Shown here one piece after another: positions 1 to 24,909 of a stretch of 44,775 nt of DNA (its first letter is position 1; every line of letters begins with the position of its first letter). Under the pieces are notes generated by a model. The model made no database searches, was not told the origin of the DNA, and worked only from the letters and a program-made list of their open reading frames with translations. A program made the translations under genes and the position numbers. Origin of the DNA: a virus; the IMG/VR virus record IMGVR_UViG_3300048759_000165, positions 1 through 44,775 of that record. One strand, written 5' to 3'.

Positions 1-52
1 AACCATCTATATCGAATTTAAACCAACTCCATCCGGGCAAAATTTCACTCAT
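1..52 (-). CDS. Start of a leftward gene cut by the window edge, function unknown
   Basis: Reading leftward, an ATG at 52-50 overlaps the TGA of the primase-helicase gene in an ATGA arrangement, which usually means translational coupling. An AGGTGG ribosome-binding sequence sits about seven bases upstream, inside the end of the primase-helicase gene. The frame is open to the window edge and gives MSEILPGWSWFKFDIDG. Seventeen residues are too few to assign a family. Position suggests another replication or nucleotide-metabolism gene of the same leftward operon; that is inference. Confidence 0.6.
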   Translation of the reverse strand, partial: MSEILPGWSWFKFDIDG

Positions 53-2955
53 AATTGATCCACCTGTTCCAAATGTACAGGAGCTGAAGATTCAGCTGCT
101 GCTACTTTATAAGATCGTTCACGTTTCGATTGCATCATATAATTAGAATCTTTATCTACTTCAAACTCTAATTCCCAATCTCTACCACCCTCACGATCTC
201 TACCTCTCACCATCAAACCCACATCTCCATTTTTTGTTAATGTGGCAATACCTATACATAAATCACATTTTTGAATGATAGTAGTGAGGGTTTGAATGTT
301 GCTATCTCGACGTAACACAGATGCGATAGCATCATCAAACCTATCCGGTCCTACATTCTTTTCCTGTAACCCTTGAATTTCTCTAGCCGCATCTGACTTA
401 TATTGGGCGGTAATAAATACTGCGCAACCTCTTCCACCAAAAGCATTACGACTAAAACGTAATAATCTTTCAATAACTTCTGATTTACGATCCCAGATAC
501 TTTGTCCATCACGATTACTATCTCCACCTACGGGCATAACTGTATCAATAGGGTCAATTACGATGTAAGTCCATTGATACTTAGACCATGTAGCTTCTGC
601 ATAAGCAAGTAACGCCCCCACCTTATCGTCATCTCCCCGAGAGAGAGCATCAATATTTTGAGGTTCTAAATGCCCAGGTACAATTTTACCTAGACGGAGC
701 TTAGTTAGTAAGGTTTTAACATGACCAAAATCTTCTTCTGTGGCGGTTCGTTTCAATCCTTCCCAATTATTTAATCCTGGGATATGACCTATTTCTTCAT
801 CATCTCTAAAGAAATGAGAAAGTTGAAGAGTTAATTTTTTAAGAAGCTTAGGTTTCTGGTGTTCACCAGCAAAAAATAATCCATGGTGTCCTTGTATAGC
901 TAAATTAAGTGCTATGGAAAGAACAGCTGTGGTTTTTCGGTTATTTGATGGTCCACATAGACATATGTAACGATCTCCATCTAAACCAATATTTGCTCCA
1001 GAATTATCAATAATTGGGAAACCTAGCATCATTTTCCGGCTATCATCATCTCCTCTAAGATCGCGTTCAAAATCAGCTAAGATAGATTCAGTGTTTTCCT
1101 GCCAAGAACCTTGTTCGAAGGTTGTATCCTGTGCTGTACTTATATTCCAATGTTTTCTTAAAGCTTTTCTCGCCCCTTGTATATCACCTTCGGTAAATAA
1201 GAAATGATTGTAAGCTGCACGCCATGCTTTATATTCATGGCGTAAATCTAGTTTTTTAAGGAATTGTTGTGCTGTATGGTCAAAAGTACTTATCGGACGG
1301 TCTGGTAAGTTATTAACAAAATGTATAACCTCATCCTTAAATTTGTTATTTTTAACCGTAGGATCATCATTTACTTGAATAAAGTATGTTAAAGCTTCTT
1401 TATCTGGAAGTTTTTGATGAACATCTATAAATTTTAATAGCATAGACATGGTGTCACCTATAGGCATTCCTAATGTAGGCACACCCACCTCACCTAACCC
1501 CACTTTTTTTGGTGTTTTATTGTTAAATCCTAATTTATCTTTTACTCGTTTAACATAAAAAATAAAGCCATCTTCCCATACTTCTGCGGGATGGTGTAAT
1601 ATAATGCTTAGAAGATCTGTTGCTTGTTGGTTACACTCTATATCCAAAGCATCACGAGTAGTAGATTTTTCCTCCACTTTATCGGATGGACTATCTTCCA
1701 TGACTTTATCCATTTGAATTTCTTGAGCTTGTTCGATAGATGTTTCTGTTTTTTCTAAAACATCAGCGAACTCCAAAATAAATTCTTCTAATCCATCATC
1801 TTTAAAAATAGGACCCAGGTAAGGCTTGTATTTTTGTTTGCCATTTTCATCCAAGGTCTCTCGTAAAATCTTAAAAATTGTTCCGATAGTGACATCAGGA
1901 CAATCATCGGAGAAGCAGTGATAACCAAAGCTGTCCCCTACTACAAACCCGCTGTAAGTAGACCCTGTATGCCGATGCCCAGCATTTAAACAGGTATCGG
2001 TAACCATGATGTGTAATCCACTGGTATCACGCTCTTCTTCAATAGAGAAAGCACCTTGATCTTCGTACCACTTGATCCAATCCGCAGGGTCAAATTTAGG
2101 GTCCAATTCAGGAATATCATTAGTTCGACGGCTGGATATTGGAATTTCGCTACCTAAGGAAATGATTTTTTCCAGGGGGACTTCTTCAATCGGACTACTG
2201 GGTTCTACAAGTTTGTTATAGCGGAAAAGTCGTTCAGGGGTATTGGTACCCTTGCGCGTAGTACTACCATAGGCTCTAGTTAAACGAGCAGGATTGAATA
2301 CAGCGTCATCGATATGGGCTGCCTCACAATTGAATTTTTTTGATAACACTTTCAAGCAATCCAGCAACATGTGAGTGTTGGATATCATATTTAGCATTTT
2401 TATTTTTGCTAGAATATGGAAACCGTTGCCGGAATCTCCAAATATAGGATTGGGCCATTGTTTTTCATCCAAGAAAGCGAGTACACTTTTCGCTACACCA
2501 CATGCTGCTGCTTTTTCTTTTTTGGTAGAGCTTTCATGCTCCATTCCCTTGGCACGTACAGTATCAACATCTATAAATAACCAATTAAGAGAATCTACAT
2601 CTTCATTTCCGGTGAGATGTTGTGAGGGGCCAGTTAAAATGGATTCAACTTGAATGTCTGTGGGGTTGTCTACTAATAACCCACCTTTACCTTTAACGCA
2701 TATTTTACAAGTACATTTCGCTCTTTCTACTAATAGATTCGCTTTTACTGGATTGATGACATAATAAATTGAAGTAACACGAGGGTCTTGATCCAGTTGA
2801 TTTACAACATCCGCTAAGCGACCATGATCGGTGAAATAAAATCCACGCCAAGGACCAGAGGTGAGACGAACACGACATTCAACGAGTTGATGGGGTTGAA
2901 AAAGTAATTTAACGCCTAATTGGATATTAGCGAATTGCGATTTGTTAGTAGACAA
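49..2955 (-). CDS. Primase-polymerase / DnaB-like replicative helicase fusion
   Basis: This 968-residue protein probably primes and unwinds phage DNA at the fork. The N-terminal part has the archaeo-eukaryotic primase (PrimPol) pattern: FIDVD with D129 and D131, the GNGFH motif ending at H180, and a third motif around 216-236 (DDAVFNPARL followed by RAYGSTTRKG). A Cys/His-rich segment near residues 320-355 could bind zinc. The C-terminal part is a RecA/DnaB-type ATPase, with a Walker A-like loop GPSNNRKTT near 667-675 and a Walker B strand YIVIDP near 797-802. The start is TTG; I chose it because a GAGGAG ribosome-binding sequence lies just upstream (2961-2966) and no better start is nearby. 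The gene is divergent from the tail genes and overlaps the next leftward gene by four bases. The fusion of both activities is clear; the biochemical detail is inferred from the families. Confidence 0.85.
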   Translation of the reverse strand: MSTNKSQFANIQLGVKLLFQPHQLVECRVRLTSGPWRGFYFTDHGRLADVVNQLDQDPRVTSIYYVINPVKANLLVERAKCTCKICVKGKGGLLVDNPTDIQVESILTGPSQHLTGNEDVDSLNWLFIDVDTVRAKGMEHESSTKKEKAAACGVAKSVLAFLDEKQWPNPIFGDSGNGFHILAKIKMLNMISNTHMLLDCLKVLSKKFNCEAAHIDDAVFNPARLTRAYGSTTRKGTNTPERLFRYNKLVEPSSPIEEVPLEKIISLGSEIPISSRRTNDIPELDPKFDPADWIKWYEDQGAFSIEEERDTSGLHIMVTDTCLNAGHRHTGSTYSGFVVGDSFGYHCFSDDCPDVTIGTIFKILRETLDENGKQKYKPYLGPIFKDDGLEEFILEFADVLEKTETSIEQAQEIQMDKVMEDSPSDKVEEKSTTRDALDIECNQQATDLLSIILHHPAEVWEDGFIFYVKRVKDKLGFNNKTPKKVGLGEVGVPTLGMPIGDTMSMLLKFIDVHQKLPDKEALTYFIQVNDDPTVKNNKFKDEVIHFVNNLPDRPISTFDHTAQQFLKKLDLRHEYKAWRAAYNHFLFTEGDIQGARKALRKHWNISTAQDTTFEQGSWQENTESILADFERDLRGDDDSRKMMLGFPIIDNSGANIGLDGDRYICLCGPSNNRKTTAVLSIALNLAIQGHHGLFFAGEHQKPKLLKKLTLQLSHFFRDDEEIGHIPGLNNWEGLKRTATEEDFGHVKTLLTKLRLGKIVPGHLEPQNIDALSRGDDDKVGALLAYAEATWSKYQWTYIVIDPIDTVMPVGGDSNRDGQSIWDRKSEVIERLLRFSRNAFGGRGCAVFITAQYKSDAAREIQGLQEKNVGPDRFDDAIASVLRRDSNIQTLTTIIQKCDLCIGIATLTKNGDVGLMVRGRDREGGRDWELEFEVDKDSNYMMQSKRERSYKVAAAESSAPVHLEQVDQL

Positions 2956-2960
2956 AATTT

Positions 2961-2966
2961 CTCCTC
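2961..2966 (-). promoter_or_regulatory. Ribosome binding site that fixes a TTG start
   Basis: On the minus strand this reads GAGGAG, five bases before the TTG at 2955. It is the reason for choosing a non-ATG start for the primase-helicase gene. Confidence 0.7.
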
Positions 2967-2971
2967 AAATC

Positions 2972-3006
2972 GAGGGGGCATCAGTTGAGGTCTGATGCCC
3001 TACCTC
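2972..3006. promoter_or_regulatory. Strong inverted repeat in the divergent hinge
   Basis: GGGCATCAG (2976-2984) and CTGATGCCC (2992-3000) are perfect 9-base arms around a 7-base loop. GAGG (2972-2975) can pair with CCTC (3003-3006) to extend the stem across a two-base bulge. It lies only five bases upstream of the primase-helicase ribosome-binding site. No T-run follows on either strand, so it does not look like a simple intrinsic terminator. It could be an mRNA hairpin controlling the primase-helicase gene, or a protein-binding palindrome between the two transcription units. Confidence 0.65.
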
Positions 3007-3037
3007 AGAACAAATCTCGCGGAGCAACCCGGAGACC

Positions 3038-3604
3038 ATGCTACTATTTTCAATACTGCACCCTTCGAGATTTCTTCGTATTTACTATGATAGTGATTTT
3101 GGGTATTGGGACTATGAGCATCAAAATTGCATGAGTACAATGAAAATTTCGTTGTTGAAGTACGAATTTATTTTTCGTTTGTTGTCCTGGCGAGAAGAGC
3201 TTAGTATGAAATTCCCACCGAAACAAGATAAGCGGCGTGTTCAATTGGCCTACGCTTTGGATGAAATATCGGGTCTCAAAGTTAATACTCCAGAAGAAGG
3301 CTTGAAAGTGATGAATGCTATACCTTTATCAGTAATCCACAGAGTTTTCATTTTATATCGGGCCGCCTTCCTGGAACCGCGGGTTTTTACAACCATAGGA
3401 TTGTACAAAGCACCGGAACCTAATAAATTAGTACGTACGTTTGAGAAAGTAGAAGAGGAACGCGAGCAAATAATGGACAAAGTTGAGAGAGAAATGGAGA
3501 CAAAATTTGGGCGTAAAGAATTGGAAGAACAACGTGCTCTGGAGCGAGAGGTTCTCAAAAAATCAGGAATGAGGGGCGCTGTAAAGGCAACCGAGGATAA
3601 ATAA
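3038..3604 (+). CDS. Putative tail/baseplate assembly protein, first rightward gene
   Basis: This 188-residue protein has no signal peptide or membrane segment. Its core contains FIFRLLSWREEL, a central segment ending GLYKAPEPN, and a highly charged helical C-terminus (about residues 133-188) likely to form a coiled coil. I have an impression of similar small proteins near tail genes in other large phages, possibly chaperones, but I cannot prove it here. The start is uncertain. The ATG at 3038 has GGAG only three bases away; ATGs at 3131 and 3206 are alternatives, and 3206 would lose the FRLLSWREE segment, so it is less likely. The next gene begins directly after its stop. Role is inferred mainly from position upstream of the tape measure gene. 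Confidence 0.6.
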   Translation: MLLFSILHPSRFLRIYYDSDFGYWDYEHQNCMSTMKISLLKYEFIFRLLSWREELSMKFPPKQDKRRVQLAYALDEISGLKVNTPEEGLKVMNAIPLSVIHRVFILYRAAFLEPRVFTTIGLYKAPEPNKLVRTFEKVEEEREQIMDKVEREMETKFGRKELEEQRALEREVLKKSGMRGAVKATEDK

Positions 3605-4690
3605 ATGCAGATAAGCCACGGTAGTCAAAATTCGATGGGCATGGAATTAATGCGTCGAATCGCTGACGGGGATTTGAAAAAAGCTCCCGCTGAGATTGTC
3701 GAAAAAGTAAAGCGAGAAATTACCGATAATTGTGAGGAATTGATTGAAATCGGGGCTCGTATTCGTCCCTTAATGAGCGGGGATAAACAAATCGGCTGGG
3801 TGCGTGGTATACACACCCAAGAACGCCGAATACTTAAGCGCTGGGTACGAGAACCTAATGATTACATTGCTTTAACCCTACTCCATGCGACTTCCCTCAA
3901 CAAAGAAGAAATCGAATCTATGCAAGGATTTGAAATTCGAAGTTTGACAGAAGTCATACGCCAAATGAGCAATTATGATGTTTCTCTTTTCCCCTATTTG
4001 AATGCCTATGTTACAACCCAATCATCGGAAACCTTGTGGTATGGGAAGGGAGAGCGATTGGCATCCTTCGAAAATAAAATCATCACTCTTCCGGATAGTA
4101 AAATCATCAATCTTATGGCACCCCCCGATCATTCCAGTATGTGGGTAACTCTTTGCAATTACAGGGAACAGGCAAAAAAGCGCTTAGAAGAAAATATGAA
4201 CGCTTTATTTATTGTCCGTCCATGGGCTGGGAAGAGCGCTGACCCTATAGCCAACGAATTAAAAGGGGTCGCCAGGTCGTTAGAGACGAACTCAGACGAG
4301 CTATGGGAGAAAGTTGTCAGTGTACCCAAGGAAGTGAACAAGAATGACGGCTGGGGGCATGTAGGCGACAGTGTGGAAGATTTAATGCGGGAAATGAAAG
4401 GTATGATGGAAGGAGATAAACATGAAAAAGTCATAGAAGCATGGCAAAGTCAAATGATTGATGAAGCAGAAGCCAAGAAGCAGGAGATTGAGAAGATTCG
4501 CAAGGATAGGGGCATTACCGCAGCGGGAATAAATTTTGAAACAACGGTGATTATGACGGATCAACAAGTCCGAGAGCGTCAACAAGCATTACGAGAAGGG
4601 AGATCGCCAAATCCCCCACCCTCGAAAAGAGAAAATTTTGAACAGGATGCTACTAACGGAATGCTGAGTAAGCTTAGGTCGTACCGCTAA
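3605..4690 (+). CDS. Hypothetical protein of the tail-assembly region
   Basis: This is a 361-residue, mostly helical, charged soluble protein that I do not recognise. There is no signal peptide, membrane segment or clear catalytic motif. The N-terminal half has alternating acidic and basic helices; the C-terminal 100 residues are strongly charged, with a predicted coiled coil around 255-300. Translation starts at an ATG directly after the TAA of the previous gene, in the same frame, with a GAGG ribosome-binding sequence eight bases upstream inside the end of that gene. Its stop overlaps the stop of the convergent membrane-protein gene. Because it lies between two small assembly-type genes and the tape measure, a role in tail or baseplate assembly is the most economical guess. 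Confidence 0.6.
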   Translation: MQISHGSQNSMGMELMRRIADGDLKKAPAEIVEKVKREITDNCEELIEIGARIRPLMSGDKQIGWVRGIHTQERRILKRWVREPNDYIALTLLHATSLNKEEIESMQGFEIRSLTEVIRQMSNYDVSLFPYLNAYVTTQSSETLWYGKGERLASFENKIITLPDSKIINLMAPPDHSSMWVTLCNYREQAKKRLEENMNALFIVRPWAGKSADPIANELKGVARSLETNSDELWEKVVSVPKEVNKNDGWGHVGDSVEDLMREMKGMMEGDKHEKVIEAWQSQMIDEAEAKKQEIEKIRKDRGITAAGINFETTVIMTDQQVRERQQALREGRSPNPPPSKRENFEQDATNGMLSKLRSYR

Positions 4691-5268
4691 TCAATCCAAG
4701 GTTTTGGGGTGTAGCCATGTTTAATAGCCCAGTTCCATGCTTCGCTACCTTCTCGAAACTCCCCTCCATTTTCCGCCATAAATTTCATATCGTTATCCCA
4801 TTCTCGATTTTTTAGCCAGTTGTGCCAAGGGTCTCGAAGTATCCAACCTAAAAATACAGGGGAGAAAGCAGCAAAAGGAGCGGCAGCAAACCATAATATC
4901 CACCCGATGGTATCGCCAGTCTTTGGGAAATGAAATACCCACACAAAAAGAAATTCAAAAAAAGCGGATAAAAGGAGACCAGCAATCATCCAGCCACACG
5001 CAATAAACATACCCTTGAAACTGCGATGATATGGCGAACCATCAGCGGTAAGGCGCTGGTGCCGACTACACATGCGCGTGATGACCATCCAAAAACTGGC
5101 AACAAGGGGTCCAAACAACAAGTAAACGAAGGCTAAACCACCCAACAAATCGCCGTCGGAGGTCACTGCTAAGGCAATTATTGGAACCACGATGTATAAC
5201 ACAGGGGCAATCAGCAGGAGACTAAATATCAGCAACTGCTCAAGTATAATTCGAATAAGTGTTTTCAT
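4687..5268 (-). CDS. Antisense multi-pass membrane protein, unknown function
   Basis: This 193-residue protein lies on the strand opposite to the surrounding tail genes. It has about four hydrophobic segments (roughly residues 5-35, 43-68, 88-116 and 121-145) and a soluble, tryptophan-rich C-terminus ending KPWID. I start it at the ATG at 5268, because GGAGGGA (5271-5277 on the other strand) is an excellent ribosome-binding site there; the frame extends upstream to 5301 without a comparable site. The stop overlaps that of the convergent gene. A lone membrane gene inserted antisense into a morphogenesis cluster resembles a moron, that is, an accessory gene acting on the host envelope. Superinfection exclusion or a lysis accessory role is possible, but no family is recognised. 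Confidence 0.6.
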   Translation of the reverse strand: MKTLIRIILEQLLIFSLLLIAPVLYIVVPIIALAVTSDGDLLGGLAFVYLLFGPLVASFWMVITRMCSRHQRLTADGSPYHRSFKGMFIACGWMIAGLLLSAFFEFLFVWVFHFPKTGDTIGWILWFAAAPFAAFSPVFLGWILRDPWHNWLKNREWDNDMKFMAENGGEFREGSEAWNWAIKHGYTPKPWID

Positions 5269-5421
5269 CTTCCCTCCACTCTTAGTATACATCAAAAACA
5301 CTGGTTTTGGCTAATTGTAAAGACCATATTTTCAACATTTTAGAGATAATTTTCAAATAAAGAGTATTAACCGTTAGTGATTTCGGCTTTTTTAACTGCA
5401 ACCCCACTTAACAGGAGCTTT

Positions 5422-6051
5422 ATGGATAATGTAGAAAGAGCACAAAGTGAATTACAAGAAATAGCCCCACCAACCCCAGAGATTGAGAAACCTAAATCCT
5501 TGGATGATGTAATCGCAGGACTTCGGGGATTTGGTCTAGAGGATTTTGAAGAAATTCTCACTGTCAAAAGTGGAAGCCATATTCTACAATTAAAAATTTC
5601 AAACATCCCAACATCAGATGAAATGTTGGCTATCCAAGCAGCGGATGAATTTAAAGGCTATCTTTGGATTAAACGAGTCAAGGTAGAACTTCTTTCTCGA
5701 TCCATTTCTTGGATTAATGGAATAAACCTTCGTAACCTTCCCCTAGACCAAAGATTTGTCTCCGACCCCACAGATAAGAGTCTATCAAAAGATTATTTAG
5801 TAGTGCTGCGAAACATCATCATGGGTTGGGGGCAAGAAGTTGTAGAAACTCTTTGGAAAGTAGTAATGAATCATTCCCAAAATGTTGAAGATCGCTTGAA
5901 GGAGCAGTTCCCTAATACCGCAATCATGACGGAAGCAGAAGCGCGTTTGATTGAGCGAGCCAAGAAACAAATGGATGATATACAAAAAGTTATTCTAGAA
6001 GATCAAGTCTCAGACTTATATAAAGAAGAAGAAAAGGAAAAAACTAACTAA
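5422..6051 (+). CDS. Putative tail/baseplate assembly chaperone
   Basis: This 209-residue soluble protein ends one base into the tape measure gene (TAATG overlap). The ATG at 5422 is chosen because AGGAG precedes it by four bases; an upstream GTG at 5377 has no such site. The N-terminus is acidic and proline-rich. The middle (about 45-150) contains SWINGINLRNLP and several amphipathic helices, and the last 50 residues are charged and helical, likely a coiled coil. Proteins immediately upstream of tape measure genes are often tail assembly chaperones, and this size and composition fit. I see no programmed frameshift joining it to a neighbour. The call rests on position and composition rather than a diagnostic motif. 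Confidence 0.55.
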   Translation: MDNVERAQSELQEIAPPTPEIEKPKSLDDVIAGLRGFGLEDFEEILTVKSGSHILQLKISNIPTSDEMLAIQAADEFKGYLWIKRVKVELLSRSISWINGINLRNLPLDQRFVSDPTDKSLSKDYLVVLRNIIMGWGQEVVETLWKVVMNHSQNVEDRLKEQFPNTAIMTEAEARLIERAKKQMDDIQKVILEDQVSDLYKEEEKEKTN

Positions 6052-9000
6052 TGCCCGACGATCCTAACAACCCGCAAGGACCTGGTAATAACAACCCACA
6101 AGGACCAGTTAATCCAGATTTGTCCGCTGCATTAAATGTTTTATCCGGGCTCACTACCACTATGGCAGCTTTAGGAGAGACACTTGAAAAAACTTTTACC
6201 ACAGTAGCGGATATGACTGATAAGGTAGTCGATCATCTTACGGATGGTGTGGGTACTATGAAGGATTTTGTGAAATACAGTGACAATCTTCAAGAAAGTT
6301 ACAAAGAGGTAGCTAAGTGGTCAAAAAAAGCTCAAAATATAGGTAAAGATCAAATGAGGGATACAGATAAGGCAAAGAAAGAGTTAGAAAAATTAATGGG
6401 AATATATAACAAAATTTTAAAAGACTCTAAAGCAAATAGAACTGAGACTGAGTTGCTCAACAAAGAATTGGATAAAGTTAAAAAAGTATATAGCGAAATA
6501 GGTAAGGCGATTAAACTAAATGAAGAAGAGCTAGCTAAGGTTGGTGAGATTGTCAGCGATTCTACAAAAAATGTTTTAGCATTAGCTAAAGCACTTAGTC
6601 AACTTCGTCCTTCATTAGCGCATTTTAAAGGCATCATGGGTATGTTGGGGACCGTCGGTATCGGGAAAGGGATTAATTATAAAATAGACCGTAGGTTAGA
6701 ACAAATTCAAGAATTGAAGGATAAAACTGAAGAAACTAAAAAACATCGTATTGCTGCGACACGCGAACATATGACAAATAAACGAGACGCCGCTTTAGAA
6801 CAAATGAAAAATATGCAGAAAGCTGGGTCTAGTATGTTTGATGAAAAAGGTAAACCCACCAAAGGCGGTATGGATTTTTTGATGAGCAAAATGGGGTTTA
6901 AAGGTAAAAAAGCGGCTGATTTTAAAACCGGAACAATGGCTGAAGGGTTCGAATCTGAAGGTGCAACAGGGGTCGGATATACCGCCGCAATGGAAGGAGG
7001 TTCCGGTGTAGTAGGGGCCATGAGCACTCTTTCCGAAGGTATTGAGGGGGCGATAACAACAGCACTTACAGATTTCGCTCCGGAAATCATGATACCTATT
7101 GAACTTCTCACTGGCGTTATTGAAAGTTTAAGTAAATTATTCACGACTTATGTTCAACAAAATAAGGACATGGAAAAAAATTTAGGGAAGGGGGGTTTAT
7201 TTACAGCAGGATTTGCTGATGCTTTTTCTACAGCACGATACGCTCTTACTCCTAGTATGAAATCTCCTTTAGAGAATGTAAGTTTAGGCATAACTTATAA
7301 ACGTAATTTGGACTTAGCTGGAGCAATCGCAAATGGAGGGTATAATGTTTCTGGTTCACTACGCCCAGATGCCCCATATGCTGCTAATATGCTGCCTGGA
7401 GCTAATGGGGGCTTTATGACTGGGGGTTTGGGTCTAGCTCAGAGATCCATTTTTGGGGCAGCGAGAATAGCTGGGTTATCAGATACTGAGGGCGTTGAAC
7501 ATCTTCTTAAATTGTTAGACAAATATGGTGAAACTTTGTCTACATCTGAAAGATTTTTTGTGCAGCTCAATAAAGATACGTCCGCTGCGGGTATATCCAC
7601 CACTAAATATTTAAAAATCATAGATGAGGTAAGTGGGCATTTTGATCGAATGAATAAGTCATTAGAAGCTACTACTGATATGATGCGTAATCTAAGTAGG
7701 TACGGAACTATAAGTTCTGAATCATTGAAAGATATGATGGAATTCCTTCAGAAAGGCGGCACGTCTCAAGGAGCGGATGATATGACCAAAGTATTTGCCG
7801 CCATGGGGGAGGATCCGCGCATGCATAAAAAAATAATAGACAATATGAAAGAACGCATTGGGGATCTGGCTGATGAATTTAACACTACCGTGTCTGAGCA
7901 GCAAATGGGGGGTAAAGGTATAGAGGTGCCTACTGATATTCGTAAGCGAATGGAATCCGGGGATACTCAAGGGGCGTTAAATGAAATACAAAGAGCTCAA
8001 AATAGAATAGCCGGATTGACGGGTAAAGACGCTACAATGATACAACCACTAACCGCAAAATTAAAAGACCTTACTCAACTTATTGAACAAACCCAAGGTG
8101 CAGAAACCAATCCCATGAAAGCTGAAGCTATGAAAAAAGCGATGGGAAATACAGTAGAACAAAATAATGAAGAAACCATACGTAATATTCATAAGATTTT
8201 ACAAGCAAGTAAAATGTCATTAGGACAGTTTTTAGGCGGTACCGCTTCTAATGATTCTATTCGAGTGGCTGAGGAGGTACGTAAAATGGTAGCCCCCAGT
8301 ACAACACTGGCTGATTTACACAATAGAGTATCAGAACTATCCGATCAATTTCAAAAAAGCGTGGTTACAACTGCGGAACAAGGAGCACCTAAATCTCCAG
8401 AAAGGAGATCGTCTTTAAAAGAACTGGTTAATATGTTCTGGAATCTTAAAGATCGAGGAGGATTAGCTATAACCCTATCAAAAAAAGGAATAATGTCTAT
8501 GGAACAAGTCATGGATAAATCTATGACTCAAGAAAAATTGATAGACGCTTTAGATTCTGTAGACAAAAACGGACAAGGTTTGATACAGCAGGGGGATATC
8601 AATAATGATATAAATAACGATGGATTTAACGCTATGAAAAATAGCGAAGAGTTACTGTACCACATAAATGAAAGACAAAAAAAAGACAAAATTACAGACA
8701 AAGACAGGGAGAAAGATTTAGATGTAGCCAGAATGCTGCCAAGACGAGAAACTACTCCAGCGGATGCAATTGGAGCAATCTTTCAACCTTGGATTTTTGA
8801 ACTTATTCATGGGGTTGAAAAATTAGTAGACTTAGCTACCTTAGGAACTAATGATACAGAGGCACTAAAAAAACTTTACGAGGAAGATAAAGGGTCTATC
8901 CAAAAAGAGATAGATAATACTCAAAAATCCATGGATGATATATCTCAAGGGCTTACAGATATAGCAGGCATACACACCACAGAAGCCGACAAAAAAAGAA

Positions 9001-9389
9001 AAGAGTTAGAAGAAAAAGGTAAAAATCTATTAGCTTGGAGAAATAGATTAGACTTGATTAGTGGTAACCAATCTTACAGTACGCCGGTCGAAGCAGCCAG
9101 CGTAGAAGCAGGATTGGGGTTACAGCCAATTGCAATGGATTTAACTAGCAGGTTACCTAAACAGTTGGACAATGGTTTAATATTAGAGACTAAGGGGGGT
9201 AGTAATCAACCACAATATAAAATAGATCAAAGTTCATTTATTGTAAATCAGTTTAGCGCTCCAATTAACCAGGATGCTGGGCATAGTGACAGCGCAAGCG
9301 TGTCTAATGAACAAGCAGGTAAACAGATGCACCCGGCAATCGCTCCTTGGTTGAATCCTAGTCGAATACCAAATAGGTTAGGGAATTAA
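6051..9389 (+). CDS. Probable tail tape measure protein
   Basis: This 1,112-residue protein would sit inside the tail tube and set its length. Most of the sequence is helical and charged, with long heptad-like stretches at about 75-235 and 880-1000, glycine-rich segments near 300-330, and a hydrophobic stretch near 337-364. Those are normal tape measure traits, and it precedes the virion lysozyme, hub and spike genes as tape measures usually do. An unusual detail is a calcium-loop-like motif at residues 838-849 (DKNGQGLIQQGD), matching EF-hand positions 1, 3, 6, 8 and 12, followed at once by DINNDG, which resembles a dockerin pair. The C-terminal 100 residues look beta-rich, possibly the hub-binding end. 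An alternative is a large baseplate or internal virion protein, but the position argues for tape measure. Confidence 0.65.
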   Translation: MPDDPNNPQGPGNNNPQGPVNPDLSAALNVLSGLTTTMAALGETLEKTFTTVADMTDKVVDHLTDGVGTMKDFVKYSDNLQESYKEVAKWSKKAQNIGKDQMRDTDKAKKELEKLMGIYNKILKDSKANRTETELLNKELDKVKKVYSEIGKAIKLNEEELAKVGEIVSDSTKNVLALAKALSQLRPSLAHFKGIMGMLGTVGIGKGINYKIDRRLEQIQELKDKTEETKKHRIAATREHMTNKRDAALEQMKNMQKAGSSMFDEKGKPTKGGMDFLMSKMGFKGKKAADFKTGTMAEGFESEGATGVGYTAAMEGGSGVVGAMSTLSEGIEGAITTALTDFAPEIMIPIELLTGVIESLSKLFTTYVQQNKDMEKNLGKGGLFTAGFADAFSTARYALTPSMKSPLENVSLGITYKRNLDLAGAIANGGYNVSGSLRPDAPYAANMLPGANGGFMTGGLGLAQRSIFGAARIAGLSDTEGVEHLLKLLDKYGETLSTSERFFVQLNKDTSAAGISTTKYLKIIDEVSGHFDRMNKSLEATTDMMRNLSRYGTISSESLKDMMEFLQKGGTSQGADDMTKVFAAMGEDPRMHKKIIDNMKERIGDLADEFNTTVSEQQMGGKGIEVPTDIRKRMESGDTQGALNEIQRAQNRIAGLTGKDATMIQPLTAKLKDLTQLIEQTQGAETNPMKAEAMKKAMGNTVEQNNEETIRNIHKILQASKMSLGQFLGGTASNDSIRVAEEVRKMVAPSTTLADLHNRVSELSDQFQKSVVTTAEQGAPKSPERRSSLKELVNMFWNLKDRGGLAITLSKKGIMSMEQVMDKSMTQEKLIDALDSVDKNGQGLIQQGDINNDINNDGFNAMKNSEELLYHINERQKKDKITDKDREKDLDVARMLPRRETTPADAIGAIFQPWIFELIHGVEKLVDLATLGTNDTEALKKLYEEDKGSIQKEIDNTQKSMDDISQGLTDIAGIHTTEADKKRKELEEKGKNLLAWRNRLDLISGNQSYSTPVEAASVEAGLGLQPIAMDLTSRLPKQLDNGLILETKGGSNQPQYKIDQSSFIVNQFSAPINQDAGHSDSASVSNEQAGKQMHPAIAPWLNPSRIPNRLGN

Positions 9390-20970: not shown

Positions 20971-22107
20971 TCAGTATTCATATCCAATTAGAGTAAAAGT
21001 GACATTTGCGGTTGTTGTATCACTCAACTGACTGATACCAATTTCTTGTCCCCCGGCAATCTCTAAACCATCTGGAATACTAATCTCTCCGTAGCCCGCG
21101 TTGTTTGTTACACCAGAAGTACTTAGTAACAATCCAAGAACAACCGGAGAAGAAGCATTTACAGTGCTCGCTGATCGTATACGCAATTTCACATATTCTA
21201 CAACAGAACTAGGTTCTTGAATTGACGCGCAAAAAGACTGTATTCGTAAAGTTTTCCCAGTTGTCACAGTATAAGTAGTAGCTGGAGAACTAACGGTTCC
21301 TGCGCGATTGGCACCAACATTAATCAAAGTCTCGGATGTAGTGGTAGCGATAGAATCAATAAACCATACGCAATAAACCCTTCCTGTATCTTTGTATTCT
21401 ATTACAAAAAGATTTTTATTTGTATCTAAAAATAAAGGTTCCAGTACATTACTAGCGTTTTGCCCCATCGCTACTGTGCCTGTAGGTGTGGTTACGGATG
21501 CTCCAGCGGTGTATTGGGTTCCTCCCCCACCCCCTGAATCTACGATTACATGCTGAGCACTGGGAAAAACAACTGTGGCGTTTAAACCGGCCGCTGCGGG
21601 TTGAGATACAATAAGATCGCCGTCACCATTCACTGAGATATTAAGCATAGCCCCGGCAGCATCCACTCCAGCGACTAAAACGGGATTAACTGTAGTTGCA
21701 CTTGTACCCGCAGCTTGAATTCCCTGCACTAAAGGATCAGCCCAAACAGCCGTTGCATTACCTGGTTGCGAAATGGGGATTTGTCCAGCATGGGTTAGGA
21801 TTCCAATAATTGGTATGCCATTGATCTCTGTGGCGTTGATGACACCAGAGCCAGTAGGGCCTAAAGTAGCACCAGAGCCTACAACTAGATTCGCTGTGGT
21901 GTTTATCCCACTGAGAATTCCATTAAATGCTATGGATCCCGTGGGGGAAATGAGGGTAGGGTCAATAATTCCCAACGCATTTAAAGAGACGATTTTACCT
22001 GAATCTGCAACGCCGCTACTGGTGACTACCACCCCCACTAGCTGTTCTTTTGACGGACCGCCAGGAACAGATTGGGTTATCGAGAAAGTTTTATAAACAT
22101 CAGGCAC
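20971..22107 (-). CDS. Antisense tail fibre-like or virion surface protein
   Basis: This 378-residue protein is encoded against the direction of the structural genes. Near its N-terminus it has GKIVSLNALGIIDPTLI, a motif I associate with phage fibre and appendage proteins. The middle is Gly/Ala/Thr-rich with low complexity (GGGGG near residue 190). The C-terminal half (about 240-378) is a beta-rich sandwich ending TFTLIGYEY, plausible as a receptor-binding head. It starts with GTG; GAGGA lies seven bases upstream, which supports that start. It converges on the preceding fibre gene. Independent expression from the 22108-22183 region is likely. No signal peptide or enzyme motif is seen; the function is inferred from composition and the one motif. 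Confidence 0.6.
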   Translation of the reverse strand: MPDVYKTFSITQSVPGGPSKEQLVGVVVTSSGVADSGKIVSLNALGIIDPTLISPTGSIAFNGILSGINTTANLVVGSGATLGPTGSGVINATEINGIPIIGILTHAGQIPISQPGNATAVWADPLVQGIQAAGTSATTVNPVLVAGVDAAGAMLNISVNGDGDLIVSQPAAAGLNATVVFPSAQHVIVDSGGGGGTQYTAGASVTTPTGTVAMGQNASNVLEPLFLDTNKNLFVIEYKDTGRVYCVWFIDSIATTTSETLINVGANRAGTVSSPATTYTVTTGKTLRIQSFCASIQEPSSVVEYVKLRIRSASTVNASSPVVLGLLLSTSGVTNNAGYGEISIPDGLEIAGGQEIGISQLSDTTTANVTFTLIGYEY

Positions 22108-22361: not shown

Positions 22362-22883
22362 ATGAGAGCATTACTGTTGCTCGTCACCATGTGGGTGCTT
22401 CCCGCTTTGGTGGCTGCACAAACGTATGACAAGCAAAAGATTGACTCATTCGCATCTGCGATAGCACACGCAGAAGGATTCAATGTTAAACATTCTATTC
22501 CAGCGAAATACCATAACCCAGGTGACATAAAAAGTCGCCCAAACTTCCATCCTTTTCCAGGTCAAAAGGCTATAGGTAAAGGTGGACACATTATTTTCAA
22601 AACAGATAAGGCCGGATGGGACGCTTTGAATGATCAAATCAAAAAAATGATTGATGGTCGATCAAAGCACTTCAATCCCAACATGACAATTGTTCAAGTA
22701 GCAAAACGTTACGCGCAAAACTGGAAACCTTGGGTTAAAATTGTGACGCATGAATTGAATGTCAACCCAAATATAACCCTAAAAAAGCTGCTAACCTCCG
22801 ATGAGCCTGAGATTTTTCTACCCTTGACAGCTTTTAATTTACCTCCGCCTACGCTAATGCTCCCAACATTAGCGAAAAATTAA
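22362..22883 (+). CDS. Exported murein hydrolase (endolysin-like, lysozyme fold)
   Basis: This 173-residue protein starts with a Sec signal peptide: basic MR, a hydrophobic run to about residue 17, then an Ala-rich cleavage region near 18-20. The mature part contains AIAHAEGF with likely catalytic E38, and NPGDI at 52-56. This EG...NPGDI arrangement occurs in a family of small phage and bacterial lytic transglycosylase or lysozyme-like proteins. The end (about 110-150) has KRYAQNWKPWVKIV and ITLKKLL, also typical of that family. Export by the host Sec system would put it in the periplasm without a holin. CGGAG precedes the ATG by five bases, and the upstream sigma70 promoter gives it independent expression. 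The reaction is inferred; a non-lytic envelope function is possible. Confidence 0.7.
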   Translation: MRALLLLVTMWVLPALVAAQTYDKQKIDSFASAIAHAEGFNVKHSIPAKYHNPGDIKSRPNFHPFPGQKAIGKGGHIIFKTDKAGWDALNDQIKKMIDGRSKHFNPNMTIVQVAKRYAQNWKPWVKIVTHELNVNPNITLKKLLTSDEPEIFLPLTAFNLPPPTLMLPTLAKN

Positions 22884-22904
22884 TCTCGCACAGTATTAGT
22901 ATGC

Positions 22905-23198
22905 ATGCGCGTAATCCAATTACCGGATGTACTATTCGAATATCTCGTCCATGTAATTGAGAAGCACTCCTCTTCCGGCATCCATCCGGAAGAGGGTCTA
23001 GCTGTTTTTCAATTATGGGACATTCTAAAAAATAGGTCTACTCACATTGATGATGCTGCTATAGAAAAAATGACAGCAGCTGGTTCCCCAGTAGGGCAAT
23101 CCCCAGCTGACCCTTTAGGGAAAATACGCCACCCAGAAGATGAGTCTGATATTCTTCCCAACACAAAAGGAAAAGCTACTGGAGTGTGTGATTTATAA
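22905..23198 (+). CDS. Small hypothetical protein in the lysis region
   Basis: This 97-residue protein has no signal peptide or membrane segment. The N-terminal half is helical; the C-terminal half is polar and Pro/Asp-rich. I recognise no family. It starts 21 bases after the exported hydrolase gene and probably shares its transcript. No ribosome-binding sequence is visible before the ATG, which lowers confidence. It fills the only sizeable gap between the hydrolase and the convergent lysozyme gene, which favours a real gene. Confidence 0.5.
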   Translation: MRVIQLPDVLFEYLVHVIEKHSSSGIHPEEGLAVFQLWDILKNRSTHIDDAAIEKMTAAGSPVGQSPADPLGKIRHPEDESDILPNTKGKATGVCDL

Positions 23199-23218
23199 AC
23201 CGTGGGGCGTAGCGTAAA

Positions 23219-23647
23219 TCATTGCCAAGTTCCGGTTATGAGTTGGGTAGCTAAACGGCCGTATCTGGCTGGGAGTTCTTTAGCGGCGGCACTTTGTAGC
23301 AAGTTTGACGCTGCTTCGTCCCATTCCCCTCGCTGCATATATGATAAGGTGTTGTGAAAAGCGAGTAGTCCATGGACGCCTACATTAAATCCTACATTAA
23401 TAAGAACACCTTGTCGTACTACATCTAATTTTGAGAACCAGGGTAAATTAGCGTTGAGATTAGCCACGACACTTGTCACATCATCATTCAAAATAGAGTT
23501 GCTTTGAGCTAAAGTAATACCGCACCCCCGGCGTTTATCAATACAATGACCTGTTCCTATTGTCCAATAACCATCATCATCTGGGTATGCGTATAAAACT
23601 GTTCCTTCATCCCGATCGAGCTGTGAAATAATATCTGTAATTGCCAT
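23219..23647 (-). CDS. T4-type lysozyme (glycoside hydrolase family 24 endolysin)
   Basis: This 142-residue protein cleaves the bond between N-acetylmuramic acid and N-acetylglucosamine in peptidoglycan. The catalytic triad spacing of phage T4 lysozyme is present: E14 in RDEGTVLYAYPD, D23, and T29 in GYWTIGTGH. Later conserved parts are also visible, including LINVGFNVG, EWDEAASNLL and a final TGTW. There is no signal peptide, so release would need a holin, none of which I can identify in the window. AGGAAG lies six bases before the ATG. It follows a fibre-like gene by 14 bases on the same minus strand and converges on the small hypothetical gene. Confidence 0.9.
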   Translation of the reverse strand: MAITDIISQLDRDEGTVLYAYPDDDGYWTIGTGHCIDKRRGCGITLAQSNSILNDDVTSVVANLNANLPWFSKLDVVRQGVLINVGFNVGVHGLLAFHNTLSYMQRGEWDEAASNLLQSAAAKELPARYGRLATQLITGTWQ

Positions 23648-23661
23648 TGTTATCTTCCTAT

Positions 23662-24447
23662 TTATAAAGCTACATCCACATACACTTGATCTAAAGCAAA
23701 ATTTATTGTTAAAATCATATGGGATTGTGCGGGAGTAGGATTGATAGCTGCTTCCCCTAACGAACTAGCTGGGGAATAACCCTCTATTACTCCCATCGGA
23801 TTTGCTAAGGTTAACGTAGTAGACGATGATCCCAGACAGTTAAATGTCCCGTTATTACCAGCGTTTACAAAACCCTTGATTGTAAGGGAGTACCCTGTAT
23901 AAGCGTTGTTAATCCCTCCGGGGATAGTTCCTATATATGTTGTACTATCGGGTGGAGAGCTTAGTTTTTCCACGGATACTAGAGAAAACAACCCTAGTTG
24001 GTTGCCTGCATCAGGTGAAAAGATAATTGAAATAACACCGTCTGCATAGGTTAGTCCTTGAGGGGAAAATCCTTGGAGTGATCCGTTGTAGTTATCGCTT
24101 AAAGCAAATCCATCAGCTAGTAAAAATTGCATCCACATCGGTAATTCTGAGGCTTGAGTAACGGGAACACTTTGATCTAAAATTACCAAGGATGCTAAGG
24201 AAAGCAGTACTAAACCATAGGTAGGAAAGGCTGCTGTGCTTCCTCTGTATGGATTAGGGCTGTTAGCAAATTCTGTGTACCAGGAAGCGTATACAGGACC
24301 TATATCCTGCACACCATTGGTGTAGTGAGTTCCGTCAAAAGAAAATCCGGTGTGGTTATTTGCAACTGGAAAGTAAAACCCATCATTTGTTCTGGGTTGT
24401 AAATCCAAGGAGGCTACTGTATCGATATTTAGGTAGTTGTAAGCCAT
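23662..24447 (-). CDS. Hypothetical virion-associated protein with a shared beta module
   Basis: This 261-residue protein is probably co-transcribed with the lysozyme gene that follows on the minus strand. The first 100 residues contain aromatic segments such as DGFYFPVANNHTGFSFDG and ASWYTEF. Around 167-222 there is a 55-residue module (TTYIGTIPGG, then NNGTF and TTLTLANP) nearly the same as two modules in the giant Ig-like fibre gene. The rest is beta-rich, ending DQVYVDVAL. No catalytic motif or signal peptide is seen. The shared module ties it to the fibre proteins, so a virion surface role is likely. Lack of a clear ribosome-binding site leaves the exact start less certain. Confidence 0.6.
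   Translation of the reverse strand: MAYNYLNIDTVASLDLQPRTNDGFYFPVANNHTGFSFDGTHYTNGVQDIGPVYASWYTEFANSPNPYRGSTAAFPTYGLVLLSLASLVILDQSVPVTQASELPMWMQFLLADGFALSDNYNGSLQGFSPQGLTYADGVISIIFSPDAGNQLGLFSLVSVEKLSSPPDSTTYIGTIPGGINNAYTGYSLTIKGFVNAGNNGTFNCLGSSSTTLTLANPMGVIEGYSPASSLGEAAINPTPAQSHMILTINFALDQVYVDVAL
23781..23949 (-). repeat. Beta module type A, copy in the antisense gene
   Basis: This 55-codon module has the skeleton TTYxGT, GG, NAYxGY, GF, NNGTFxC, TTLTLxNP, GV. It closely resembles the modules at 31027-31209 and 31293-31457, with local DNA similarity around AACGCTTAT. Confidence 0.8.
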
Positions 24448-24504
24448 ATCTAATAACTATTTTGTTAGTTGATTTGAAAAACCCAACTATCGTTTCCTAA
24501 AGTG

Positions 24505-24909
24505 ATGCGGCAGAAAAAAGAACTTAAAGGATTGAAGTTTGGATTTTTATCAGTACTAGGTCTTGGGCTTCCCCAAGGAACGCGGAATAGACCTACTTGG
24601 ATAGTTCGTTGTATTTGTGGTAAAGAGAAGTCTATTCGTGAAGATGTCCTTGTGTCTAACAGAGTTAAGAGTTGTGGGTGCGCCTCCGGCCGATTAAAAA
24701 AATCAAAAATGGAAAAACGATATGGTCTTACGAATAAAAAATTTGGTCGGCTCTGGGTTGTATGGCGTATTGGATCTGTTCAAATAGGGAAATCTTATCA
24801 TTCTCTTTGGATGTGTAAATGCATTTGTGGGACATTTCTTACTGTGCAGGGCGGGAAACTTACCAGTAACAAAACTACAAGTTGTTCAGCTTGTGCGATG
24901 GAGGATTAA
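24505..24909 (+). CDS. Small protein with two tandem zinc-ribbon-like repeats
   Basis: This 134-residue basic protein contains two related halves. The first has KFGFLSV followed by CICGKE and SCGC; the second has KFGRLWVV followed by CKCICG and SCSAC. Each half therefore supplies two Cys pairs for one zinc ion. This FGxL...CxCG...SCGC unit is familiar from the N-terminal parts of phage HNH/AP2-type homing endonucleases and from stand-alone small phage proteins. No HNH or AP2 catalytic part follows, so it may be a DNA-binding remnant or a small regulator. A GTG at 24502 is an alternative start. Its stop lies directly before the next ATG, and its end provides the GGAGG ribosome-binding site of that gene. 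Confidence 0.65.
   Translation: MRQKKELKGLKFGFLSVLGLGLPQGTRNRPTWIVRCICGKEKSIREDVLVSNRVKSCGCASGRLKKSKMEKRYGLTNKKFGRLWVVWRIGSVQIGKSYHSLWMCKCICGTFLTVQGGKLTSNKTTSCSACAMED

What the first reader, a model, noticed from the sequence alone, without database searches (positions are those of the whole stretch)
4687..5268. Antisense membrane gene inside the tail-assembly cluster
A four-segment membrane protein with its own strong ribosome-binding site is inserted between two assembly-type genes, with its stop overlapping the convergent stop. This is moron-like placement, and such genes often alter the host envelope or block superinfection. I recognise no family for it.
Basis: inference. Interest (0 to 1): 0.55.

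Follow-up and report, generated by a model that had tools for sequence, protein, structure and literature searches.

The report
Antisense membrane-gene slot beside phage tail genes
In a group of giant soil-bacterium viruses, one small gap between two tail genes is either empty or holds a backward-facing gene for some membrane protein, usually behind the same kind of switch, which suggests an exchangeable accessory gene that changes the infected cell, possibly to keep rival viruses out.

Summary
The gene is real: 4687-5268 (-), 193 aa, about four membrane segments, SD GGAGGG, stop overlapping the convergent stop. The window is a fragment of a virus related to the 309-kb jumbo phage Tunturi_5. 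Among 53 syntenic loci, the slot between the gp259-like gene and the tail-assembly-chaperone gene is empty in 22 (15 distinct), holds an antisense membrane ORF in 29 (18 distinct), and a sense homing endonuclease in 2. The antisense ORFs fall into several families without reliable kinship, yet 15 of 18 sit behind GTATACT just before the start. In the window this is the best promoter of its class in 44.8 kb. That class elsewhere precedes non-structural genes (helicase, sigma factor, rIIA), so the gene is probably expressed apart from the tail genes. It matches no known family. The window's own clade is wholly filled; the sister clade is empty. Moron placement is supported; a lysis role is unlikely. 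Superinfection exclusion at DNA entry is the likeliest function but unproven: window and its twin L002 differ mainly in this gene and the tape measure, but tape measures also vary between empty-slot phages.

The parts
4687..5268 (-). Membrane protein gene, 193 aa, about four predicted membrane segments
   Evidence: homologues in the same slot
5272..5277 (-). Ribosome-binding site GGAGGG, 3 bases before ATG 5268
   Evidence: Sequence
5284..5313 (-). Promoter: TAGCCA, 18 bases, TATACT (with G before it: GTATACT)
   Evidence: best-scoring site of its class in the window
3605..4690 (+). Convergent gene, like Tunturi_5 gp259 (hypothetical); its stop overlaps that of the membrane gene
   Evidence: 45% identity, E 5.7e-101
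5422..6051 (+). Tail assembly chaperone-like gene (Tunturi_5 gp258), divergent from the membrane gene
   Evidence: 45% identity, E 8e-58
6051..9389 (+). Tape measure-like gene (Tunturi_5 gp257); 55% identical to L002 although the flanks are nearly identical

Best explanation
The gene is a moron: an accessory inner-membrane protein gene in an exchangeable slot of a jumbo-phage lineage, with its own promoter of a class used by non-structural genes (shown by sequence comparison). It is therefore probably transcribed early or independently, while the surrounding tail genes are late (inferred). The protein inserts in the host inner membrane (predicted). Its likeliest task is to stop further phages from entering the infected cell, by interfering with tape-measure-guided DNA entry as HK97 gp15 is thought to do (inferred from membrane nature, turnover, place beside the tape measure gene, and one twin-genome comparison). 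The confidence given is for this function; the moron and exchangeable-slot part alone I put at about 0.85.
For: Slot empty in 22 of 53 loci, antisense membrane ORF in 29, several families. GTATACT before the start in 15 of 18 distinct filled slots, not in empty ones. The same promoter class precedes helicase, sigma factor, RIIA, HTH and metallophosphoesterase genes; none of 13 scanned of 21 is structural. Window and L002: no substitution in 49-4690 or in the chaperone gene, 23 in the membrane gene, tape measure 55% identical. In L006 the gene has stayed with chaperone and tape measure while the gp259-like gene lies elsewhere. HK97 gp15 lies between chaperone and tape measure genes, and its block is escaped by hybrids with another tail tube and tape measure (PMC10883804 passage).
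Against: The tape measure is also exchanged where there is no slot gene (L024/L025 49% identical, L048/L051 86%), so the twin comparison does not prove a link; one recombination tract may explain the 23 changes. dN/dS there is 0.68, not above 1. No match to any known exclusion or defence protein. The known tape-measure cases in the passages seen are of non-contractile tails, and Tunturi_5 is a myovirus. Expression time was not measured.
Confidence: 0.4

Rival explanations
1. Host-takeover membrane factor: it alters host envelope physiology (transport, stress response, receptor display) to favour the infection, without acting on competing phages.
For: Same facts of membrane nature, promoter class shared with other non-structural genes and absence from many relatives.
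Against: The place beside chaperone and tape measure, and the window/L002 pattern, are not explained by it.
Confidence: 0.3
2. Lysis protein: a holin, antiholin or lysis-timing membrane protein.
For: Small multi-segment membrane protein; the only four-segment ORF in the window; RIIA shares the promoter class. Holins appear among chance-level Foldseek hits (E 0.8 and worse).
Against: Absent from 22 of 53 loci. The lysozyme gene lies at 23219-23647, 18 kb away. The promoter class is that of non-structural genes. No holin family match.
Confidence: 0.1
3. Selfish or neutral cargo: the slot is merely a site where mobile DNA lands, and the proteins do nothing for the phage.
For: GIY-YIG endonuclease in the same slot in L019/L020 and HNH endonuclease beside the membrane gene in L006; 16-bp direct repeat with one mismatch flanking the L012 insert.
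Against: All 18 distinct non-endonuclease fillings are antisense with at least one membrane segment, mostly behind one promoter type; mostly synonymous changes in L007/L008; presence throughout a clade.
Confidence: 0.1

Closest known systems
HK97 gp15 moron (superinfection exclusion)
   Same: Accessory predicted inner-membrane protein gene beside chaperone and tape measure genes (PMC10883804 passages)
   Different: HK97 gene 15 is on the sense strand, 189 bases with stop (62 aa by that length), between chaperone and tape measure with a putative terminator after it; ours is antisense, 193 aa, before the chaperone; HK97 is a siphovirus (recalled). No direct comparison of the two proteins was run.
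P22 SieA
   Same: Small multi-segment inner-membrane protein (about 160 aa, three segments) that blocks DNA injection (PMC10883804 passages)
   Different: Prophage-expressed, short-tailed phage, acts on ejection proteins by hypothesis; no family match of ours to it in the libraries scanned; not compared directly
TP-J34 Ltp
   Same: Exclusion protein whose block is overcome by tape measure changes (PMC10883804 passage)
   Different: Surface lipoprotein of a Gram-positive host (PMC3952083 abstract start in the search listing)
SNIPE
   Same: Membrane protein that associates with the tape measure during DNA entry (PMC13190303 passages)
   Different: Bacterial defence protein with a nuclease; no nuclease or PADLOC match in ours
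PHROG 944 (moron, 'membrane protein')
   Same: Weak local match, E 0.026 over residues 87-172
   Different: Not significant; not seen for L005, L006, L007 or L009

Membership tests
Moron (accessory phage gene with its own expression signals between conserved genes) | Present in some and absent from other relatives at a conserved junction | tested here: met
   29 of 53 loci filled with an antisense membrane ORF, 22 empty, 2 with an endonuclease
Moron (accessory phage gene with its own expression signals between conserved genes) | Own promoter | tested here: met
   By sequence only: TAGCCA-N18-TATACT, best of its class in the window
Moron (accessory phage gene with its own expression signals between conserved genes) | Own terminator | tested here: not met
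   No terminator-like site after the gene; the one minus-strand hit lies inside it. I count the terminator as usual, not defining
Superinfection exclusion protein acting on the tape measure (HK97 gp15 type) | Blocks DNA entry of a second phage | not testable with these tools
   Needs infection assays
Superinfection exclusion protein acting on the tape measure (HK97 gp15 type) | Escape or specificity maps to the tape measure | tested here: inconclusive
   Both change in window/L002 and L012/L018, but the tape measure also changes without a slot gene
Superinfection exclusion protein acting on the tape measure (HK97 gp15 type) | Sequence kinship with a known member | tested here: not met
   No significant family match for the window protein; no direct comparison with gp15, SieA or Ltp
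Holin | Holin family match or adjacency to the endolysin | tested here: not met
   No match; lysozyme gene 18 kb away
PHROG 944 | Significant profile match | tested here: not met
   E 0.026

The most novel reading that the evidence does not exclude
These jumbo phages keep a dedicated 'exclusion slot' beside the chaperone and tape measure genes: a standing antisense promoter behind which unrelated membrane proteins are exchanged, each matched to the tape measure type the phage carries, so that slot and tape measure evolve as a self/non-self pair.
Probability: 0.2. Interest if true: 0.75.

Novelty: new variant of a known kind. Interest (0 to 1): 0.5.

Why it matters
It gives a fixed genomic address at which jumbo phages of this lineage exchange small membrane proteins of no known family, with an expression signal by which to find more. 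If the exclusion reading is right, the slot is a catalogue of naturally varied blockers of DNA entry, and an isolated relative (Tunturi_5 with its Tunturiibacter host) exists in which it could be tested.

Tried and rejected
Known-family assignment: Pfam, PHROGs, PADLOC, NCBIfam, PDB sequences, phage records, plasmids and bacterial genome contigs gave nothing significant for the window protein. For the other slot proteins the only passing matches were the endonucleases and, weakly, L052 to phrog_14925 (unknown function, E 0.0004). Structure route: AlphaFold2 on a 7-row alignment gave pLDDT 60.8, and Foldseek against PDB and BFVD gave nothing at E 0.001 or better; holin names among those hits were disregarded for that reason. 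Kinship of slot family A (window) with family B was tested and not found (hhalign probability 2%).

The idea that tape measure and membrane gene must change together was weakened: in L007/L008 the tape measure is 100% identical while the membrane gene has 9 substitutions, and in L024/L025 and L048/L051 the tape measure changes with no slot gene. Positive selection was not shown (dN/dS 0.68). A plain AGTATAC count in the window is not above chance (6 against 6.6 expected); only the full element, in its place before the gene, is unusual.

Full report
What is there. The ORF at 4687-5268 on the minus strand encodes 193 aa from ATG 5268 with the ribosome-binding site GGAGGG (5272-5277); its stop overlaps that of the convergent gene 3605-4690. 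Hydropathy shows four membrane segments, the last weak. Loop charges (N-terminus 2 K/R, loop 1 none, loop 2 five, loop 3 one, tail six with nine D/E) suggest both ends inside, an inference. The record is a 44,775-base virus contig. Its tape measure gene matches that of Tunturiibacter phage Tunturi_5, a 309-kb jumbo myovirus of an Acidobacteriota host (PMC11924767, passages). In Tunturi_5 the genes gp260, gp259, gp258 (tail assembly chaperone) and gp257 (tape measure) follow in the same order (gp260-like is window 3038-3604), but gp259 and gp258 are adjacent, with no membrane gene.

The slot across relatives. The chaperone profile found 51 loci in viral contigs. I examined 53: 50 of these, L002 (which stands for L004, the same contig), the window and Tunturi_5. 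Twenty-nine hold an antisense ORF with at least one membrane segment, 22 are empty, and L019/L020 hold a sense GIY-YIG homing endonuclease. For L023, and for L024, L025 and L039, I read overlapping or split gp259-like ORFs by eye as empty slots. L012 also has an antisense soluble ORF of 440 aa. Setting near-identical contigs aside leaves 18 filled, 15 empty and 1 endonuclease. On a quick tree of both flanking proteins the window's clade (9 loci) is wholly filled, its sister clade (L024, L025, L026, L039) wholly empty, and at least six changes are needed in all. L012 (filled) and L018 (empty) are about 92% identical before the slot and 87% after it; the insert is flanked by a 16-bp direct repeat with one mismatch.

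The contents are of several kinds. Family A (window, L002, L005, L006, L007/L008; L009 by a held-out profile, E 6e-5) and family B (L013, L032, L040, L052, L049; L010 by a held-out profile, E 7e-7) show no reliable kinship with each other (E-values are for a set of 19 proteins). L030 and L036 form a third; L030 also gave E 1.5e-4 against the family B profile, which I leave open. L027 carries a related pair of its own. L012, L021, L022 and L031 stand alone, though L031 gave E 0.002 against L030. L010 has the family B protein in a phage of the window's clade, so contents have been exchanged or replaced. Family A was found in 5 of 35 whole records, each time only in the slot; the profile includes those five.

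The promoter. In 15 of 18 distinct filled slots GTATACT stands just before the start (in L010 before a 64-aa ORF that precedes the membrane gene); L036 has GTATAAT, and L012 and L022 lack it. Ten of 18 have GTATACT-N5-TGGAGG exactly (tallied by eye). A weight matrix trained on 23 sites away from the slot (from regions fetched because they matched the pattern, so not chosen blindly) scored the window's slot site 26.5, best in the window; the next was 18.2, and the highest of 40 Markov controls 17.2. Slots of family A score 18.7 to 26.5; family B ranges from 1.3 to 24.7, and several other slots keep only the -10 box. Empty slots reach at most 4.6 (15 tested). The GTATACT-TGGAGG pattern occurs 22 times in 9 of 19 records, against once for the reversed pattern; a pattern with the -35 box occurs 19 times in 4 of 9 records, against none. 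Of 21 genes behind such sites I scanned 13; named ones are a DinG-like helicase, a sigma factor, an RIIA protein, a metallophosphoesterase and an HTH protein, and none matched a structural family. I infer early or independent expression; no expression was measured.

The twin genome. L002 is identical to the window over 49-4690 and the chaperone gene. The membrane gene has 23 substitutions in 578 bases (15 of 20 changed codons alter the residue, most in the C-terminal half). The tape measure is 55% identical. One substitution lies in the intergenic stretch and three downstream genes differ by seven in all. This fits a pair of interacting partners. In L012/L018, where slot content differs, the tape measure is 44% identical with flanking proteins at 90-93%. 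Against it: the tape measure is also changed between L024/L025 and L048/L051, which have no slot gene, and one recombination tract may explain the 23 changes. In L006 the membrane gene has stayed with chaperone and tape measure, with an HNH gene between, while the gp259-like gene lies about 22 kb away.

Reading. A moron in an exchangeable slot is well supported. For function I favour superinfection exclusion at DNA entry, by analogy with HK97 gp15, whose gene sits between chaperone and tape measure and whose block is escaped by hybrids with another tail tube and tape measure (PMC10883804, passage). A host-takeover membrane factor is nearly as likely. Lysis is unlikely: the gene is dispensable across the lineage, the lysozyme gene lies 18 kb away, and its promoter class precedes non-structural genes. 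Five literature searches listed no paper whose title or abstract start describes this slot; I read passages of three papers only, so absence from print is not claimed.

Noticed in passing
window 6051-9389 against L002: The tape measure proteins of two otherwise almost identical contigs are only 55% identical, a sharp mosaic; tape measures are likewise exchanged between L024 and L025.
   Followed up: partly
L058-L077 (records G002, G004, G014, G015): A phage-wide promoter class (TAGCCA, TATACA or TGGACA, 18 bases, GTATACT) precedes helicase, sigma factor, RIIA, HTH and other non-structural genes.
   Followed up: partly
L018 7860-8010; L012 650-760 and 3020-3190: Empty and filled versions of the slot in related phages; the insert is flanked by a 16-bp direct repeat with one mismatch.
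   Followed up: partly
L006 6765-7976 and L016 7962-9089 (same contig): Rearranged locus: the membrane gene stays with an HNH endonuclease, chaperone and tape measure, again overlapping the stop of a convergent gene, while the gp259-like gene lies about 22 kb away.
   Followed up: partly
L019/L020 7298-7963: A GIY-YIG homing endonuclease occupies the same slot on the sense strand.
   Followed up: partly
window 22362-24909: Lysozyme gene 23219-23647 (-), a protein with a signal-like N-terminal hydrophobic stretch at 22362-22883 (+), an antisense gene 23662-24447 related to Tunturi_5 gp248, and an HNH endonuclease match at 24502-24909.
   Followed up: no
window 20971-22107 (-): A second antisense gene (378 aa, no membrane segment, no family match) in the structural cluster.
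   Followed up: no
L024, L025, L039 just before the chaperone gene: The gp259-like match is split into a long ORF and a piece of 66-78 aa, as by a frameshift or an insertion.
   Followed up: no
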